DNA from: a virus
IMG/VR virus record: IMGVR_UViG_3300012012_000438
Location: 1-20,276 of that record
DNA: 20,276 nt
Reading direction: 5' to 3' (one strand)
Part shown: positions 2,097-14,059 of the stretch, one piece after another
How the letters are laid out: every line of letters begins with the position of its first letter
How positions within the stretch are numbered: the first letter of the stretch is position 1
Made by a program: the position numbers and the translations under genes
Notes under the pieces: generated by a model
Database searches by the model: none
Seen by the model: the letters and a program-made list of their open reading frames with translations, nothing else
Told to the model about the DNA's origin: nothing

Positions 2097-4139
2097 ATGA
2101 TTCCTCAAAACGCTCTGATGGCCGGTCAACCGCCGGCTGCCGGGCCTGATCCCATGCAGGCTTACGAGAGCAAGACGTCGCTCGAAACTCTGATCACGTG
2201 GTTTGAGGACGCCGAGGAGGCGACCGAGACCGCGCGCAAGAAGTCGGAGCGCGATCGGGATTACTACGACGGCAACCAACTGACGCCGGCTGAGCTAAAG
2301 ACGCTCAACGAGCGCGGCCAGCCGGACGTGATCATCAACCGCGTACAGAGTAAGGTAAACTACCTCGTTGGGTTCGAGGCGACGAACAGAACCGATCCCA
2401 AAGGGTTCCCGCGCACGCCGCAGGATGATGGAGCGGCCGAGGCCTGCACCGATGCGCTCCGCTATGTCGAGGACAGCGCCGAGCTAAAGCCAAAGTTCTC
2501 CAACGTCTGGGAACAGATGCTTGTCGAGGGGTTTGGCGGGCTTGAGCTGTTGGTCGAGGAAAAGACCGACGCAAGCACGGGGCAGCCCCGGCGCGAGATC
2601 ACAGCGGTCGAATGGGATTGGGACCGCCTGTTCTACGATCCGCATTCGCGCAAGCACGATTTCAGAGATGCCCGTTACCTCGGCGGCGTCGTGTGGATGG
2701 ACGCCGAGGACGCAAAGCAGATGTGGCCCGGCGAGGAGCAGGCCGAAGCAATTGAAAAGACCGTTTTGGATGGTCAAAATTCGACCACCTATGACGACCG
2801 CCCCGAGTGGCAGAAGTGGACCAGCGGCAAAGGCCGCAAGAGGGTTCGCATTGTCCAGATGTACCACCGCGAGGGCCGCGATTGGATGCTCTGCAAGTTC
2901 ACAAAAGGAGGCAAGCTCGAAAGCATGCCTGTGCCGTTCAAGGATCAGGACGGCGAGAGCTGGTGCCCGATGTTGCTGCAATCGGCATTCGTCGACCGCA
3001 AAAACAACAGATACGGCATCGTTCGTTCCATGATCTCGGTACAGGACGAGATTAACAAGCGGCGCTCTAAGGCGCTGCATCGGCTGAGCCAGCGCCAGGT
3101 CAGGGCCGAGCGCGGCGCCGTCGATGATGTCGACGCGGCTAAGAAAGAACTCAGCAAGCCGGATGGCTGGGTCGAGACCAATCCCGGCTTCGAGTTCGAG
3201 CTACTAGCGCAGGGAGATCAGCTCACGGCCGAGCTGACCATGCTGCAGGAAGCTAAAAACGAGATCGAGCTGATCGGCCCTAACGCGAGCATGCAGGGTA
3301 AGAGTGGCGGCGACCCATCGGGCCGGGCGATTCTGGCTAACCAGTCCGGCGGCCAGACCGAGATCAGCGTTCTTGTCGACCGTCACCGCCATCTGAAAAA
3401 GCGCTGCTATCAGCGCATGTGGGATCTGATCCGCCAGTTCAAAGACGAGCAGTGGTGGATCAGGGTCACCGACAATGAGGAGAACATCAAGTTTGTCGGC
3501 TTCAATCGTCCCGTGACGATGCGCGATGAGCTGATGAAGCGGGCCGAGGCGTCCGGCATCCCGCCCGAGGAGTTCGCTCAGCGGATAATGGAGCTGGAGC
3601 AAGACCAGTTCGCGGCGCAGCAGCTTGAGCAAGTGGTCAGAACAGAGAACAACCCGGCGCAGATGATGATGGATATCACCGTCGAGGAAGTTCCCGACAC
3701 TGCGAATATCCAGATGGAGCAGTTCGACGCGTTGGTGAAGCTCGCGCCGGCCGTGGTGTTCCCGCCGACCGTCTATATCAAGGCCTCGGGCCTTAGAAAC
3801 AAGCGCGAGCTTCTGGAGGAAATCCAGGGTGGCGGGCAAAAGGAAGATCCGGCTGCTGCCGAACTCAAGATGCGCGGCGCTGTGGCCGAGGTCGCCAAGC
3901 TGGAAGCCGAAGTCGACAAAATCAAATCCGAGGCGGTCAAGATCCGCGTCGAAGCAAACATGGCGCTGCAGCCTGATCCGGTGGTGATTGATCCCGCCGT
4001 CGAGCAGGGTGGCGCAAATCAATCTGTACCTGCGTCTGTACCCGCGTCTGTACCTGAGTCCCCGCCGCCAGGGTCAATGGGCGATCCAAACCAGCCGCCG
4101 CCGGGCTTAACGGGCGTTGAAGGGATAGCAGTACAATGA
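2097..4139 (+). CDS. Portal protein, P22 gp1-like
   Basis: The portal forms the dodecameric ring at one head vertex through which DNA enters and leaves. The 680-aa length is near the 725 aa of P22 gp1, and the opening half has typical P22-type portal sequence (ERDRDYYDGNQLTPAEL, QPDVIINRVQSKVNYLVGFE). Position between terminase and scaffold agrees. Residues about 580-625 form a charged coiled-coil helix (LKMRGAVAEVAKLEAEVDKIKSE), matching the barrel region of P22-like portals, followed by a Pro-rich tail that includes a threefold VPAS/VPES repeat. The first residues, MIPQNALMAG, carry a short motif shared with other small proteins in the window. A 62-nt gap separates it from the terminase; CAGGA lies about 15 nt before ATG, a weak ribosome site. 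Its stop overlaps the scaffold start (ATGA). Confidence 0.92.
   Translation: MIPQNALMAGQPPAAGPDPMQAYESKTSLETLITWFEDAEEATETARKKSERDRDYYDGNQLTPAELKTLNERGQPDVIINRVQSKVNYLVGFEATNRTDPKGFPRTPQDDGAAEACTDALRYVEDSAELKPKFSNVWEQMLVEGFGGLELLVEEKTDASTGQPRREITAVEWDWDRLFYDPHSRKHDFRDARYLGGVVWMDAEDAKQMWPGEEQAEAIEKTVLDGQNSTTYDDRPEWQKWTSGKGRKRVRIVQMYHREGRDWMLCKFTKGGKLESMPVPFKDQDGESWCPMLLQSAFVDRKNNRYGIVRSMISVQDEINKRRSKALHRLSQRQVRAERGAVDDVDAAKKELSKPDGWVETNPGFEFELLAQGDQLTAELTMLQEAKNEIELIGPNASMQGKSGGDPSGRAILANQSGGQTEISVLVDRHRHLKKRCYQRMWDLIRQFKDEQWWIRVTDNEENIKFVGFNRPVTMRDELMKRAEASGIPPEEFAQRIMELEQDQFAAQQLEQVVRTENNPAQMMMDITVEEVPDTANIQMEQFDALVKLAPAVVFPPTVYIKASGLRNKRELLEEIQGGGQKEDPAAAELKMRGAVAEVAKLEAEVDKIKSEAVKIRVEANMALQPDPVVIDPAVEQGGANQSVPASVPASVPESPPPGSMGDPNQPPPGLTGVEGIAVQ
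4023..4058 (+). repeat. Three 12-bp tandem repeats in the portal 3' end
   Basis: Three adjacent 12-bp units of the form TCTGTACCYGMG encode VPAS, VPAS and VPES in the Pro-rich tail of the portal. The unit is a multiple of three, so gain or loss of a copy keeps the frame. Confidence 0.85.
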
Positions 4140-8352: not shown

Positions 8353-9180
8353 ATGGCCTTTTTCAGCGATTTGTTTGGCGGCAAATCCGCCATGAAATCC
8401 GCAAACGACGCGGCGGAGGCATCGGCTCGCTACACGAACACGGGTTACACCAATCAGCGCGAGCAGTTGCAAGGCGGATACGGATCAGCCGATACGATCC
8501 TGTCGGGCTATGAGAAGCCGGGGCAGCAGGCCTATCAGCAGTATGCCGACAGCATCGGCGTCAACGGTGGAGAAGGATACGCACGTGCTAGGCAGAGCTT
8601 CGATGCTGATCCTTTTAGGGCTGGGCAGACAGATGCCACCGATCGCGCAATTCAAAGTATGTTCCGGCGATACAACCCGACCGGCCAGACTGGCCAGCAG
8701 ATGACGGCAGTCGGCCGTGTCGGGTCAGACATCTACGGCCAACAAGTCGACGCCTATCGCGCGCGGCTCGCTGCATTGGGCCAGCAGGGCGCTGGATTAG
8801 GCCAGCTGCGCGCCGGCAACGCGATCTCGCAGGGCCAGCAGGTAGGCCAATCTTACCTTGGCCAGAACAATCAGCTTGGATCGATCGAGGCGAACCGCAT
8901 CCAAGGTGTTCAGGCTGCAAGAACGCAAGGCCAGAATAATTTAATGAGCGGTCTCGGCGCGATTGCCGGTATAGCGGCCGCTCCTTTTACCGGCGGGGCA
9001 AGCCTCGGCTTGACAGCGTCGTCACTTAGTCGAATGGGAGGCGGAGGCGGAGGCGGGGGCGGAGGCGGGGGCAATCCAATGGGCACGGGATGGATGCAGC
9101 CCGGCAGGTCTATCGCCGGCAATTGGATGAACGGCGCTCCGACTAACTACGGTTCGTCGTGGGATGCATGGTCGAGGTGA
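8353..9180 (+). CDS. Ejection / DNA transfer protein, P22 gp7-like
   Basis: By order this is the first of three proteins expelled from the virion to make a DNA channel in the host envelope. The 275-aa product starts MAFFSDLFGGKSAMKSANDAAEAS, a typical opening for gp7-like proteins. A long Gln/Gly/Ala-rich helical region follows (many GQQ and GQ steps between residues 45 and 195). Next come a hydrophobic segment (GLGAIAGIAAAPFTGGASLGLT, about residues 200-221), a run of 12 Gly and a Trp/Asn-rich tail. NNLMSG just before the hydrophobic segment resembles the motif at the starts of neighbouring proteins. The start has GAGG 5 nt upstream. Assignment is by position and composition. Confidence 0.72.
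   Translation: MAFFSDLFGGKSAMKSANDAAEASARYTNTGYTNQREQLQGGYGSADTILSGYEKPGQQAYQQYADSIGVNGGEGYARARQSFDADPFRAGQTDATDRAIQSMFRRYNPTGQTGQQMTAVGRVGSDIYGQQVDAYRARLAALGQQGAGLGQLRAGNAISQGQQVGQSYLGQNNQLGSIEANRIQGVQAARTQGQNNLMSGLGAIAGIAAAPFTGGASLGLTASSLSRMGGGGGGGGGGGGNPMGTGWMQPGRSIAGNWMNGAPTNYGSSWDAWSR
9037..9072 (+). repeat. GGN tract encoding 12 glycines
   Basis: Twelve consecutive Gly codons (GGA, GGC and GGG, mostly as GGAGGC or GGGGGC hexamers) lie near the 3' end of the gp7-like gene. The tract is in frame and could expand or contract by slippage without frameshift when whole codons change. It probably makes a flexible linker. Confidence 0.9.
9174..9180 (+). promoter_or_regulatory. Ribosome site GAGGTGA
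   Basis: GAGGTGA overlaps the stop of the gp7-like gene and lies 4 nt before the ATG at 9185. It supports that start for the 53-aa gene over the in-frame ATG at 9164. Confidence 0.65.
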
Positions 9181-9184
9181 CGCA

Positions 9185-9346
9185 ATGAACCGAAATGCTC
9201 TGATGGCGGGCGAGGATCGGATATTTGCGATGCCGTCGCACTCGGCCGCGCGCAACTCCCTCGGGTTTGATCGTATGGAAGTGCTCAAACAGAACCCGCA
9301 GGCATACAGGCCGCAACCGTTCCCGACAATGCGAGGGTTTCGCTAA
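9185..9346 (+). CDS. Small protein with N-terminal NALMAG motif, 53 aa
   Basis: The 53-aa product begins MNRNALMAGEDRIFAMPSHS and is basic and Pro-rich toward its end (QAYRPQPFPTMRGFR). No family is recognised and no membrane segment or signal peptide is seen. Its first nine residues match the N-terminal motif of the portal and of two other frames in this window. It sits between two ejection-block genes: a GAGGTGA ribosome site precedes it, and its TAA overlaps the next ATG (TAATG). A minor virion protein or ejection accessory is plausible from context only. Confidence 0.68.
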   Translation: MNRNALMAGEDRIFAMPSHSAARNSLGFDRMEVLKQNPQAYRPQPFPTMRGFR

Positions 9347-10788
9347 TGGTCCGCAACACACTCATGCCGCAGATGCAGCTCTACGACGCTCCGTCTGGCC
9401 CGAACGTCGGTAATTTCATTAATCCTCTAATGGCTGGATTAAAGCGCGGCGACGATATGCGGCAGCAGGAGTTCGCGAACGAGCGTGCTTTGGCGCTGGA
9501 GGCGCGGCAAGGCGAGCAGCTCAATCTTGCCAAGAATGCCGACACCCGAGCCGGTGATGCGCAGCGCATGGCCAAGGAGCGGGCAGAGGTCGAGCGGCTA
9601 GGCAAGCTGGCTCAGGTGATCGCCGACGACCCCAACGACGCCACGGCCTCGCAGCGCTGGCAAGGCGTGATTCAGAGCAACCCGCAGATGGGGGAGCTGC
9701 TGCAGAAGTACGGCGTCAACTTGAACGACCACCGCACCGGCGCGAATTTCCTGATGGCCCAGGTTGGCAGCTACATGAGCCCGGCGCAGAAGGAACTAGA
9801 GAAGCTTAAGACGGATGCCACGCGCGCACAGGTCGGCAAGCTCAACGCCGAGGCCAAAGCTCTCGGCCAAAAGGATTTGGTCAGCGAGCTGATCATGAGC
9901 CAGCTGCGCGGCGGCGCGGCGGAACCGCAGTCGGCAGCCCCTGGTCCCATCCGACCGCAGTCCTTCAACATGCCGCCAGGCCAAGACCCCAACCTTATCC
10001 CGGTCCAGTCTGCGGCGCCGGCAACGCAGCAACAGCAGCAGCAGCCCGACATGATCGACACACCCTATGGGCGCATGACGCGGGACAAGGCTCGCACGGT
10101 GGCGGGCGCCATGCTGCTATCGCCTCAGTATGCGCAGGCCGGAAAGGCGTTGCTCGACGCCGCGGCGGCGGGTGCCAGCAACCTAGGCAAAGAAGCCGGC
10201 AACGAAAACGACAAGAAAGAGATGGCCGCGCTTGAGGGTTTGCAGCGTGTGCGCCAGATCGCATCCGGGTTTAAGCCGGAATGGCTAACATACGAGAACA
10301 AGGCCAAGCAATACGGGGTGAGCTGGGCGGATTCTTTTGAATTGACGCGCAAAAAGCTGCCGCCCGAGCTGGTCAAGGACCACGTCGAATATACGATGTT
10401 TAAGCGGGATGCAATCTCCAACCTCACGCAGGGCATTAAGGATGCCACCGGCGCTGCCATGGGTGTGCAGGAAGAGGTCCGTATTCGCGCCGGTCTGCCG
10501 GACCCGGAGAAGGACAACCCGACGGCGTTTGAGGCCAAGATAAAGGGTGTCGCGCGTGAGTACACTCTGACCATTGCGCGCACTCAGTATCTGCGCCGCA
10601 ACGGATTTCAGGGCGATGGCAATGCCGCCGCGTTGAAGCTGCCGGTCGGTCAGTTCTCGCAGATGATCCAGCAGCGCACAAACCAGTTGCAACAGCAGAT
10701 CCGGCAGCAGAACCCGCAAGCAAACCCGGCACAGATCCAGCAGGCTGTAAAGCAGGGGCTCCAGACTGAATTTGGATTGGGGATCTGA
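9346..10788 (+). CDS. Putative ejection protein, P22 gp20 position
   Basis: This 480-aa product occupies the place of P22 gp20, an internal protein released into the host during DNA entry. It begins MVRNTLMPQ and has a second copy of the motif at residues 26-31 (NPLMAG). Residues about 35-90 form a strongly charged helix (RQQEFANERALALEARQGEQL, AQRMAKERAEVERLGKLAQV). The middle (about 195-240) is Pro/Gln-rich with six consecutive Gln, and the C terminus is a Gln-rich helix (QRTNQLQQQIRQQNPQANPAQ). No enzyme motif or transmembrane segment is visible. TAATG and TGATG overlaps couple it to both neighbours. The ejection role is inferred from order and composition. Confidence 0.68.
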   Translation: MVRNTLMPQMQLYDAPSGPNVGNFINPLMAGLKRGDDMRQQEFANERALALEARQGEQLNLAKNADTRAGDAQRMAKERAEVERLGKLAQVIADDPNDATASQRWQGVIQSNPQMGELLQKYGVNLNDHRTGANFLMAQVGSYMSPAQKELEKLKTDATRAQVGKLNAEAKALGQKDLVSELIMSQLRGGAAEPQSAAPGPIRPQSFNMPPGQDPNLIPVQSAAPATQQQQQQPDMIDTPYGRMTRDKARTVAGAMLLSPQYAQAGKALLDAAAAGASNLGKEAGNENDKKEMAALEGLQRVRQIASGFKPEWLTYENKAKQYGVSWADSFELTRKKLPPELVKDHVEYTMFKRDAISNLTQGIKDATGAAMGVQEEVRIRAGLPDPEKDNPTAFEAKIKGVAREYTLTIARTQYLRRNGFQGDGNAAALKLPVGQFSQMIQQRTNQLQQQIRQQNPQANPAQIQQAVKQGLQTEFGLGI

Positions 10789-13166
10789 TGGAACCGCTCA
10801 ACGGCATCGACCTCCTGTTCGGAGACAGCGCGGCGGCAACGATGCCGGTACAGTACCCGGTGATGCGACCGCAACCCGTGCCGCAACCCGGCATGGAGCT
10901 CCCGGCGCCCAAGATGCCCGCTCCAGTCCAGTTGCCAGCCCCACTTGACGGTGTCGACATGCTGTTCGGCACGCCGACGGCGCAGCCTCAGCAGCTAGCC
11001 GTCGATCCTAACGCCGAGCCCGACGCCAAGACCTGGCTCGGCCGCCGGTGGCAGGACATCCGCGGCAAGCAGGACCCAACCACTGCCAACTTGCCGACGT
11101 TCCTCGGCCCGACGATGGAACGGGAACTGCCGGAAGCAGGGCAGCGTGGTCCGATCGCGGCCAATATCGTGCTTGGCCAAAGTGATGAAAGCCTCGCCAA
11201 GCTGATCGGCCAGCAACTCGGCTCCCGGTTCAAGGGCATTCGCAAGGATGCCAACGGCTATCCGATCGTCAGCTATATCGGCCAGGACGGACAGCCGGCC
11301 GAGTCTTATGTCAATCGCCCCGGTCTCGACATGCAGGATCTGACGCGCGGCGTTGTTGGCGCTGTGCCTTATCTCGCTGTCGGCGGCGTGGTCGGTGCTG
11401 GCGTGCGAGGGGCAAGCCTCTTGCCACGCATGTTGGCGCAGGGCACGACCCAAGGGGGCACCGCGGCGTCAACCGATCTTGGCGCAGCACTCGGCGGCGT
11501 GGCCGACTTTGATCCGGGTCAAACGGCGCTTAAGACCGGGCTTGCCGCCGGGTTTGGGGCAGGCGGCGAGGCGCTCGGCGCGGCGACTGGCACGATCTGG
11601 CGCAAGTTTGTGACCGAACCTGGATTGTTCGACGCGTCCGCCGGGCAACTGACGCAGAAAGGCGCACAGGCCGCGCAGCAGGCAGGGCTTGATCCGGCAC
11701 AGCTCTCCCGCGAATTGCAGCAGCAGTTTGCCAAGGATCTCGCGCGGACAGGCAGCGGACAGACGGCAAGCCGTGGCGTGGTGTCGGCTGAGTTCGGTAT
11801 CCCACGCACACGCGGTGAGTTGCAGAACGACATACCGACTCTTATCCGCGAGCAACAGGTTCGGGGCGGCAACTACGGCCCCGACGCCGCAAACCGGATG
11901 AAAGACTTTGACACCGGTCAGCAGGACGCTGTGCGCAACGCGCTGTTCGGCGAGATTACGACCAACACGGGGCGGCAGAAGCCAGGCATTGCCCAGCAGA
12001 TCGCGCCGAACCGAACCGTCAGCGACTACGGCAAAGCCGAGGTCGGCGGCAACATTCGAAAGAGCACGGAGGCTGCCTATCAAACGGCAAAGCAGGCAGA
12101 GGATGCGGCGTGGGATCTCGTGCCCAAGAATATCAAGCCAATGCCGGAGTCGATGCCGTTGCTGGCTCAGCGTGTGAACGCCGCAGTCGGCGACTTCGAC
12201 ATCATGCCGGATGGGGTTGCAGCGCGCATGATCAAGAAGGTCGGTCAGTTCTCGCGCAACGAGGCGCCTGCACAAATCGACGACATCCTCACGTCCTCAC
12301 CTGTGGGCGATGTCGGTAAGATGCGCAAGATCTTGACCGGAACGCTGGCCGACGCTCAAACGCCATCCGATCGAGCCGCCGCCGGCGCCGTTTACGACGC
12401 CTTCAACGAGTGGGCACGCGAGGCCGCAGAGCAGGGATTGCTCAACGGTGCTGACGCCATCGGCATGGCCAATATGACGACGGCGCGCGGCATCTCGCGT
12501 CAAATTCACCAAGTGTTCGAAGGTCAGAAGGGGACGCCGGGCGCGCGCATCCTGGCTGATGTGCTCAAGAAATCGGACAGCGCCGAGGGCGTGGTGAACG
12601 CACTTTTCACGGGACCGACAAGCGAGATCAAGGCGGGAACCATCCAGGCGCTGCGAAGTCTAAAGCAGGCTTACAACACGCATCTCGCGCCGGAAGCCGC
12701 CAAGACTGCATGGGACGACATCCGCCTCGCATACGTTCTGCGTATGGTGCAGGACACCACAAAATCCGTGGGCGATCCGGTCGGTGCGCAGGCGCTACAG
12801 TCCAACATCAACCGGAATCTCAGCAAGCAAATGAGTGTGGCGCGAGAGCTTCTGACGCCGGAAGAAATCGGCATGCTGCGCCGGTTCTCAGCGTCGCTGC
12901 AGGGCATTGAAAAGAAGAATATCAACCGTTCGTGGTCGGGCGTCAGCGCTGCCAGCTACGCAAAAGACTTCATGAACGCTCTGATCACCGCTGTCGGGTT
13001 CAAGTCGACACTGGCCGGCACGGTCGGCAACATGGCCGGCGCCAACATTGCCAAGCGGGCCTATGGATCGACGCAGGCCTCGCAGGCTATCTCCGGCATG
13101 CCGAAGGCGCTGCCCTCGCCGTCATTCGCCGGCTACGGCGGGGCCTACGGCTCCCAGCAGGACTGA
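10788..13166 (+). CDS. Putative ejection protein, P22 gp16 position
   Basis: The 792-aa product ends the ejection block, where P22 has gp16, a protein that enters the host membrane during infection. Two near copies of one motif lie in its Pro-rich start: LNGIDLLFGD (residues 4-13) and LDGVDMLFGT (53-62). A Gly-rich hydrophobic stretch (GVVGAVPYLAVGGVVGAGVRGA, about 188-209) could insert in a membrane, and another Gly/Ala-rich part lies near 230-270. The rest is long and helical, ending in a hydrophobic Gly/Ala segment (ALITAVGFKSTLAGTVGNMAGANIA). No transglycosylase or protease motif is seen. Its start overlaps the preceding TGA (TGATG). Role inferred from order; the length exceeds P22 gp16 (609 aa). 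Confidence 0.68.
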   Translation: MEPLNGIDLLFGDSAAATMPVQYPVMRPQPVPQPGMELPAPKMPAPVQLPAPLDGVDMLFGTPTAQPQQLAVDPNAEPDAKTWLGRRWQDIRGKQDPTTANLPTFLGPTMERELPEAGQRGPIAANIVLGQSDESLAKLIGQQLGSRFKGIRKDANGYPIVSYIGQDGQPAESYVNRPGLDMQDLTRGVVGAVPYLAVGGVVGAGVRGASLLPRMLAQGTTQGGTAASTDLGAALGGVADFDPGQTALKTGLAAGFGAGGEALGAATGTIWRKFVTEPGLFDASAGQLTQKGAQAAQQAGLDPAQLSRELQQQFAKDLARTGSGQTASRGVVSAEFGIPRTRGELQNDIPTLIREQQVRGGNYGPDAANRMKDFDTGQQDAVRNALFGEITTNTGRQKPGIAQQIAPNRTVSDYGKAEVGGNIRKSTEAAYQTAKQAEDAAWDLVPKNIKPMPESMPLLAQRVNAAVGDFDIMPDGVAARMIKKVGQFSRNEAPAQIDDILTSSPVGDVGKMRKILTGTLADAQTPSDRAAAGAVYDAFNEWAREAAEQGLLNGADAIGMANMTTARGISRQIHQVFEGQKGTPGARILADVLKKSDSAEGVVNALFTGPTSEIKAGTIQALRSLKQAYNTHLAPEAAKTAWDDIRLAYVLRMVQDTTKSVGDPVGAQALQSNINRNLSKQMSVARELLTPEEIGMLRRFSASLQGIEKKNINRSWSGVSAASYAKDFMNALITAVGFKSTLAGTVGNMAGANIAKRAYGSTQASQAISGMPKALPSPSFAGYGGAYGSQQD

Positions 13167-13289
13167 CAGCAGCCAGTGCCTTAGTCCGATCTTCACCGCC
13201 TTGAAGGTGATGATAATTACGGCGATCAGGGCGACCGCCACGACGACCCGTATTCGCCTGTGCATGCGTTGCAGCTAGAAGAACCGAGC

Positions 13290-13400
13290 ATGAACCGCAA
13301 TGCACTGATGTCCGGTTATCCAATGCCGGAAGGGTCAGCTCCGTACTACGGGCAGCAGGTCATGCCGTCTTCGGCGCTGAGCGCTTATAAGCCAACGTAG
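13290..13400 (+). CDS. Short NALMSG-motif frame ending in a suspicious amber codon
   Basis: ATG 13290 opens 36 codons (MNRNALMSGYPMPEGSAPYYG onward to SALSAYKPT) and stops at TAG 13398-13400. AGAAG lies 8 nt before the ATG. The opening is nearly identical to that of the 53-aa protein encoded at 9185. The same frame stays open for another 67 codons after the TAG and ends exactly at the start of the next gene, so this is probably the 5' half of a single 104-codon gene interrupted by one nonsense codon. If the TAG terminates fully, the product is a 36-aa peptide of unknown role. Confidence 0.55.
   Translation: MNRNALMSGYPMPEGSAPYYGQQVMPSSALSAYKPT
13398..13400 (+). other. In-frame amber codon dividing one frame
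   Basis: TAG lies between codons for YKPT and RDRLASLMM in an otherwise continuous frame from 13290 to 13604. A single base change from TGG (Trp) would restore PTWRDRL. The next base is C. Other genes here (DUF5681-type, terminase, scaffold) end in TAG, so the codon is not generally reassigned. Confidence 0.8.
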
Positions 13401-13421
13401 CGGGACCGTCTTGCAAGTTTG

Positions 13422-13604
13422 ATGATGCCAGATGGTGCGGCTAGCCCTGAACGCAATAGGCTTGTCGAGGGCCTGACCGGCATGGACCAAGTGTCCCAGG
13501 CCATGAGTACGGGCCAAACTTCCGATGGTCTTGGAAATATAGACCTTCGTGACCAACCCGATGGTGCCTCCAAGCCACCGAACCCTTTAATGCAGGGCTA
13601 CTGA
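13422..13604 (+). CDS. 3' half of the amber-split gene, 60 aa
   Basis: This frame could start at ATG 13422 or 13425 (or TTG 13419) and ends with TGA 13602-13604, overlapping the next ATG as TGATG. The product is polar (MMPDGAASPERNRLVEGLTG at the start) and ends NPLMQGY, echoing the NALMSGY near the start of the upstream half. No convincing ribosome site lies 5-10 nt before any of its starts; a GGGA is about 16 nt away. Expression would therefore need readthrough of the amber codon or reinitiation after it. It may instead be the dead half of a recently broken gene. Function unknown. Confidence 0.5.
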   Translation: MMPDGAASPERNRLVEGLTGMDQVSQAMSTGQTSDGLGNIDLRDQPDGASKPPNPLMQGY

Positions 13605-14059
13605 TGCGCAAACTCATTGAACAGAACGGTGCCCGCGTCAAGACGGGCTGGCCGGTGCAGTTCCACAGGTACGCACCCGATAAACTCCCCGATCCCGCCG
13701 ACGTGATCGACTGCCCGCTGATCGTCAACGACCGGTCGGACGGCGTGCCGCGCGGGCGTGTCGTGGTGTCGAACGGCGCGAGCTATGACACGGTTGCGTA
13801 TCTCACCGACATTCCAGCCGGATCGCCAGCGGTTGCCTTGGCGCAATCTCTGCCTGCGTTGCCCGTCACGCAACCAATCGCGGCTCAGGTCACCGAGTTG
13901 CGTCCGCTGGTGGCGTCCGATCCCGCCCTTGCTGCCCGTGTCGACGCAATCGAGCGCACGACGGGTGAGTTGTCTGCCCGCGTCTCCGAGCTTGAGCGCA
14001 TTTTCGATGAGCTAAAAGGCGCTGCTGCTGCCATCCGATCCACAAAGGGCCGAACCTAA
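13604..14059 (+). CDS. Hypothetical coiled-coil protein before the tail fibre
   Basis: The 151-aa product has two parts. Residues 1-75 look globular with short strands (KTGWPVQFHRYAPDKLPD, VIDCPLIVNDRSDGVPRGRV). Residues about 90-140 form a charged heptad-like helix (DPALAARVDAIERTTGELSA, then RVSELERIFDELKG) suited to trimeric or dimeric coiled-coil formation. It lies between the ejection block and the tail fibre with TGATG and TAATG overlaps on its two sides, so a virion part is likely, for example a connector between tail hub and fibre. It is not obviously the P22 gp26 needle, which is longer and mostly coiled coil. No named family is recognised. Confidence 0.65.
   Translation: MRKLIEQNGARVKTGWPVQFHRYAPDKLPDPADVIDCPLIVNDRSDGVPRGRVVVSNGASYDTVAYLTDIPAGSPAVALAQSLPALPVTQPIAAQVTELRPLVASDPALAARVDAIERTTGELSARVSELERIFDELKGAAAAIRSTKGRT

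What the first reader, a model, noticed from the sequence alone, without database searches (positions are those of the whole stretch)
13290..13604. One gene split by a single in-frame amber codon
The frame 13290-13604 is continuous except for TAG at 13398. The halves together make a 104-codon gene that has a ribosome site in front and a TGATG junction with the next gene behind, and both ends carry the same N-x-L-M-x-G-Y motif. The second half lacks its own ribosome site. A TGG to TAG change would restore PTWRDRL. Options are a recent nonsense mutation, a sequencing error, or deliberate partial readthrough that makes a short and a long product.
Basis: partly seen in the sequence, partly recalled or inferred. 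Interest (0 to 1): 0.6.

Follow-up and report, generated by a model that had tools for sequence, protein, structure and literature searches.

The report
Broken remnant of a phage enzyme gene
This short phage reading frame is the leftover of a larger gene for an enzyme that the virus probably carries in its particle: the enzyme part has been deleted and a tryptophan codon has become a stop, so the 'split gene' is ordinary gene decay, not a deliberate two-product trick.

Summary
Frame 13290-13604 is open except for TAG at 13398-13400; it starts NALMSGY, ends NPLMQGY, and has a TGATG junction. Both halves carry coding signal in this frame.

Relatives decide the question. Five phage contigs (L040, L041, L045, L054, L056) carry the same N-terminal module as one unbroken frame. 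All five have TGG (Trp) in PTW[RK]DR where the window has TAG. A profile built without the window matches straight through the stop, E about 1e-19. No relative has a stop or two genes here. TAG ends the terminase and scaffold genes in this lineage, and no tRNA was found. Mutation (or base error) is supported; readthrough is not.

Relatives are 377-668 aa with an ADP-ribosyltransferase (ART-PolyVal) domain. The window jumps in frame from the N-module (...EGLTG) to the C-terminal tail (GMDQV...NPLMQGY), joined at a GGC codon present on both sides; 298-584 residues are missing.

Side finding: the N-x-L-M motif recurs at the ends of this phage's predicted ejection proteins, and one relative uses a different motif (DLM) in the same way.

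The parts
13290..13604 (+). Remnant gene: one frame of 104 codons plus stop, interrupted by an in-frame amber
   Evidence: coding signal in both halves
13398..13400 (+). In-frame TAG, at the place of a conserved Trp codon (PT-W-[RK]-D-R)
   Evidence: Five relatives have TGG here; profile alignment runs through it
13290..13481 (+). N-terminal module, residues 1-64 (NALMSGY tag ... PT*RDR ... SPERNRLVEGLTG)
   Evidence: Profile of L040, L041, L045, L054, L056 matches 13329-13481, i-Evalue 1.2e-19, in a six-frame scan of the window; first 22 aa match L018
13479..13481 (+). In-frame deletion junction (shared GGC codon) where the ART domain is missing
   Evidence: Codons on both sides match the N side and the C side of L040, which has 517 residues between them; 298-584 in four relatives
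13482..13601 (+). C-terminal tail, residues 65-104 (MDQVSQAMS ... NPLMQGY)
   Evidence: MDQV segment matches relatives' C-termini (i-Evalue 0.026, best in window); NPLMQGY and the TGATG junction match L018 in DNA and NLLMQGY in L054
13299..13319 (+). Terminal tag NALMSGY
   Evidence: the same motif recurs in this phage
13581..13601 (+). Terminal tag NPLMQGY
   Evidence: L018 NPLMRGY, L054 NLLMQGY
13256..13289 (+). Upstream DNA shared with L018 (GCCTGTGCATGCGT...GCTAGA...), possible promoter or leader
   Evidence: Local DNA alignment
10788..13166 (+). Upstream neighbour, predicted ejection (internal virion) protein of 792 aa
   Evidence: 76% identical in L002, 35% in MW202785; function inferred from gene order
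13604..14059 (+). Downstream neighbour, 151 aa, overlaps the remnant's stop
   Evidence: 70% identical in L018 with the same junction

Best explanation
The frame is a decayed copy of a late gene that in related phages encodes a larger protein with an ADP-ribosyltransferase (ART-PolyVal) domain, probably packaged in the virion and injected with the DNA. Two lesions are seen. One is an in-frame deletion of the whole catalytic middle, joining the N-terminal module to the C-terminal tail at a GGC codon both sides share. The other is a Trp (TGG) to amber (TAG) nonsense change in the N-terminal module. As it stands the gene can make a 36-residue peptide without enzyme activity, and at most traces of a 104-residue tag-bearing protein by chance readthrough. 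Shown: the stop, the Trp codon in relatives, the domain loss, the shared ends and neighbours. Inferred: packaging and injection, loss of function, and that the deletion came first and relaxed selection.
For: Five of five relatives with the N-module have TGG in PTW[RK]DR. A profile made without the window matches residues 14-64 through the stop, i-Evalue 1.2e-19. Junction codons: window GAG GGC CTG ACC GGC ATG GAC CAA GTG; L040 N side GAA GGC CTG ACC GGC, C side TAC GGC ATG GAT CAA GTG. L018, L042 and L054 have intact ART genes in the same slot between the ejection gene and the tail fibre; L002 has a single 432-aa gene there. The ART domain is recognised in L018 (E 8.4e-8) and L054 (E 6.9e-8), and is absent from the window. 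TAG is a conserved terminator of the terminase and scaffold genes in close relatives.
Against: The second half shows no further stop in 67 codons and keeps coding-like codon usage, so decay must be recent, or the short frame may have kept a use. A 53-aa tag-only ORF at 9185-9346 shows that small tagged proteins may exist in this phage. The C-terminal segment match is short (i-Evalue 0.026). No close relative sharing the deletion or the TAG was found, so neither lesion can be dated or shown to be shared.
Confidence: 0.8

Rival explanations
1. Base-calling or assembly error: the real phage has a sense codon at 13398 and makes an uninterrupted 104-residue protein with a tag at each end and no ART domain.
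For: Single base difference from the conserved TGG; both halves still look coding; a tag-only small ORF exists at 9185-9346.
Against: Nothing else in the window suggests poor sequence: the main genes are open. The gene has a second, independent sign of decay, the domain deletion. Reads could not be examined.
Confidence: 0.08
2. Programmed amber readthrough: a short 36-aa and a long 104-aa product are both made on purpose.
For: Open frame after the stop with coding signal and a conserved C-terminal end.
Against: The stop is not conserved: relatives have Trp. TAG is an ordinary terminator in this lineage. No suppressor tRNA in the window or related contigs. The stop is followed by CGG, which is no readthrough context known to me (own knowledge).
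Confidence: 0.03
3. Two separate genes, the second starting at TTG 13419 or ATG 13422 or 13425.
For: In-frame start codons shortly after the stop would allow reinitiation.
Against: These codons lie inside the N-terminal module, which relatives encode in one frame; no ribosome site in front.
Confidence: 0.02
4. The short tag-only form is the ancestral or a functional form, and relatives gained the ART domain by insertion between the tags; only the TAG is a lesion.
For: Cargo differs between relatives (L002 and L018 share no alignable cargo), so the slot exchanges cargo; tag-only ORF at 9185-9346.
Against: The GMDQV tail in the window belongs with the end of the ART region in L018, L040 and L041, which fits loss better than never having had it.
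Confidence: 0.07

Closest known systems
ART-PolyVal domain proteins (Pfam PF18760; polyvalent proteins of Iyer et al. 2017, PMC5512222), often with LPD23 (PF18838)
   Same: N-terminal module, C-terminal tail and position among late virion genes are those of phage genes that carry this domain.
   Different: The window copy has lost the ART domain and is cut by an amber codon.
Phage T4 Alt, a virion-packaged and injected ADP-ribosyltransferase (described in PMC5512222)
   Same: Likely way of working of the intact relatives: an ART delivered with the DNA.
   Different: Different ART family, phage type and gene context; delivery is inferred here, and the window copy has no enzyme domain.
Programmed stop-codon readthrough in phages (for example Q-beta A1, UGA; own knowledge)
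   Same: A stop inside an otherwise open frame.
   Different: The stop is not conserved; relatives have Trp.

Membership tests
Gene inactivated by nonsense mutation | Relatives read through the position with a sense codon in one continuous frame | tested here: met
   TGG in five of five relatives
Gene inactivated by nonsense mutation | The stop is real in the population rather than a base error | not testable with these tools
   No reads; no near-identical contig covers the site
Virion-associated polyvalent ART protein | ART-PolyVal (PF18760) domain present | tested here: not met
   Searches with the L018 and L002 proteins find no ART domain in the window; present in L018 and L054
Virion-associated polyvalent ART protein | Gene among late virion genes | tested here: met
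   Between a predicted ejection gene and the tail fibre, as in L018, L042 and L054
Virion-associated polyvalent ART protein | Packaged in the virion and injected | not testable with these tools
   Needs virion proteomics
Programmed amber readthrough | Stop codon conserved among homologues | tested here: not met
Programmed amber readthrough | Suppressor tRNA or amber reassignment | tested here: inconclusive
   No tRNA in the window or related contigs, but the host is unknown and the window is a fragment; TAG is used as a normal terminator
Two separate genes | Independent ribosome site and separate frames in relatives | tested here: not met

The most novel reading that the evidence does not exclude
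The N-x-L-M-x-G motif at both ends of this frame is a phage-specific address tag. Each phage of this group puts its own short motif (NxLM in the window, L018, L002 and L054; DLM in L045) on the ends of its ejection proteins and its ART cargo, so that they are packed in or ejected from the head together. The window's remnant, and the 53-aa ORF at 9185-9346, would then be tags without cargo.
Probability: 0.35. Interest if true: 0.6.

Novelty: new member of a known kind. Interest (0 to 1): 0.25.

Why it matters
As asked, the finding is ordinary: it removes a candidate for programmed amber readthrough and shows how a phage effector gene decays in place. Its value lies in what the comparison brought up. 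There is a late-gene slot in which related podoviruses keep exchangeable ADP-ribosyltransferase cargo, and a short terminal motif shared by the ejection proteins and the cargo of one phage and replaced by another motif in a relative. If that motif is a packaging or ejection tag, it would give a testable rule for predicting which proteins such phages inject.

Tried and rejected
DNA search of phage records with the region gave nothing. The 104-aa frame had no PHROGs family, no plasmid match and no viral-contig match by its own peptides. The second half alone gave only a chance match. A portal-based search of genome contigs found none. A search of 385 bacterial genomes with the N-module profile found none and, lacking a positive control, says nothing. 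The first alignment with L002 alone put a Pro next to the stop and the L018 DNA alignment put a Val codon near it; both were replaced by the five-relative alignment, in which the module is conserved. An AlphaFold model of the L018 protein had low confidence (mean pLDDT 57.6) and its PDB search found nothing significant, so the ART assignment rests on Pfam only. In one search the script's automatic pick for L054 (residue G) is a regular-expression slip; one search shows its Trp codon. A minus-strand membrane-like ORF at 13122-13265 was considered and dropped: L018 has a stop soon after the shared start.

Full report
What is there. The window is a 20,276-base virus record of IMG/VR, part of a podovirus-like phage with a P22-type portal, a Phage_capsid_3 capsid, a tail fibre and a lysozyme. 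The frame 13290-13604 is as described: ATG at 13290, TAG at 13398-13400, TGA at 13602-13604, and the next gene's ATG sharing the A of that TGA. Both halves score as coding in this frame and in no other. For the second half none of 5000 dinucleotide shuffles reaches the score, and 4.5% of them stay open.

Relatives by neighbourhood. The upstream 792-aa gene led to L002 (76% identity) and to MW202785 (31-35%). The downstream 151-aa gene led to L018 (70%). MW202785 has no gene in the slot. L002 has one 432-aa gene, MADRNALF..., with a below-cutoff ART-PolyVal match. L018 has one 409-aa gene, MDRNALMAGY...NPLMRGY, with an ART-PolyVal domain above cutoff (E 8.4e-8) and the same TGATG junction. The first 22 residues of the window frame match L018 (E 5e-6 in a pairwise comparison; E 0.001 against the window). 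DNA from 13256 to 13445 and from 13577 onward also aligns with L018.

Relatives by protein. A scan with the L018 protein found 30 loci. Five of them (L040, L041, L045, L054, L056) carry the window's N-terminal module, for example L040 AYEPTWRDRLARVLMGEQRASPERARLVEGLTG against the window's AYKPT*RDRLASLMMPDGAASPERNRLVEGLTG. All five have TGG at the position of the TAG. A profile of these five, made without the window, finds 13329-13481 in a six-frame scan of the window with an i-Evalue of 1.2e-19, running straight through the stop; the next best match is chance.

The missing middle. In the relatives the module is followed by several hundred residues that include the ART-PolyVal domain and, in L040, L045 and L054, an LPD23 domain. 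The window goes directly from EGLTG to MDQVSQAMS. MDQV belongs to the tail that follows the ART domain in relatives (L040 YGMDQVQRVM, L018 YGMDAVQSVM). At codon level the window reads GAG GGC CTG ACC GGC ATG GAC CAA GTG. L040 reads GAA GGC CTG ACC GGC TCA on the N side and TAC GGC ATG GAT CAA GTG on the C side. The switch falls on the GGC codon both sides share, and 298 to 584 residues lie between the two sides in four relatives. The frame is therefore best read as an in-frame deletion derivative. No ART sequence remains elsewhere in the window. L042 and L054 also have an ART gene followed directly by the tail fibre, so the slot is a usual place for such genes.

Why not readthrough. The stop is not conserved. 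The phage lineage ends its terminase and scaffold genes with TAG at conserved positions, so amber is a working terminator. No tRNA was found in the window or in the related contigs examined, though the host is unknown. The second half has no ribosome site and its first ATGs lie inside the conserved module. A sequencing error at one base remains possible and needs reads.

How it most likely works. In relatives the product is likely a virion-packaged ADP-ribosyltransferase injected with the DNA, as argued for polyvalent proteins in general (PMC5512222) and known for T4 Alt (same source); this delivery is inferred. In the window the gene is a remnant that can yield a 36-residue peptide. That the deletion preceded and permitted the nonsense change is a guess, not shown.

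The terminal motif. N-x-L-M occurs 8 times in the window's genes (read-through included) against 0.46 expected, six of them at protein ends, with no shuffle of 2000 as high. It sits in the portal N-terminus, the 275-aa and 480-aa genes, the 53-aa ORF at 9185-9346 and this frame. The phages of L018, L002 and L054 are also enriched for it. The phage of L045 has no N-x-L-M but 12 xDLM (0.92 expected), at the ends of its ejection-type proteins and its ART protein, MPDLMMPE...KRDLMSN. I found no description of this in the papers searched, which is a weak search. The motif was noticed before it was tested, so these counts are descriptive.

Verdict. Observation confirmed; the mutation option is supported; the thing is a decayed effector gene and of low interest in itself. 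The terminal motif deserves its own look.

Noticed in passing
window 2097-4139, 8353-9180, 9185-9346, 9346-10788, 13290-13604; L018, L002, L054; L073 and L074: Short motif (NxLM; xDLM in the phage of L045) recurring at the ends of predicted ejection proteins and ART cargo, far above shuffles and differing between phages: a possible packaging or ejection tag.
   Followed up: partly
window 9185-9346: A 53-aa ORF, MNRNALMAGEDRIFAMPSHSAARNSL..., resembles the tag-bearing start of the L018 ART protein but has no other recognisable domain.
   Followed up: partly
window 13256-13289; L018 3738-3771; L002 7388-7424: CCTGTGCATGC and nearby bases upstream of the gene are shared by three phages with different cargo; possible promoter or regulatory element.
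   Followed up: partly
window 13122-13265, minus strand; L002 7296-7397: Small membrane-like ORF starting MHR on the opposite strand in both; in L018 the same start runs into a stop after six codons.
   Followed up: partly
L024, L025, L026: The relative of the 151-aa gene lies after the tail fibre and just before a lysis-type gene, not before the fibre as in the window.
   Followed up: no
L017 263-1948: A 792-aa-gene relative in a Proteobacteria MAG contig ends in SSRNALMPR, the same motif at a C-terminus.
   Followed up: no
L018 183-3548: Different genes (697 and 422 aa) in place of the 792-aa gene, yet with the same N-P-L-M motifs.
   Followed up: no
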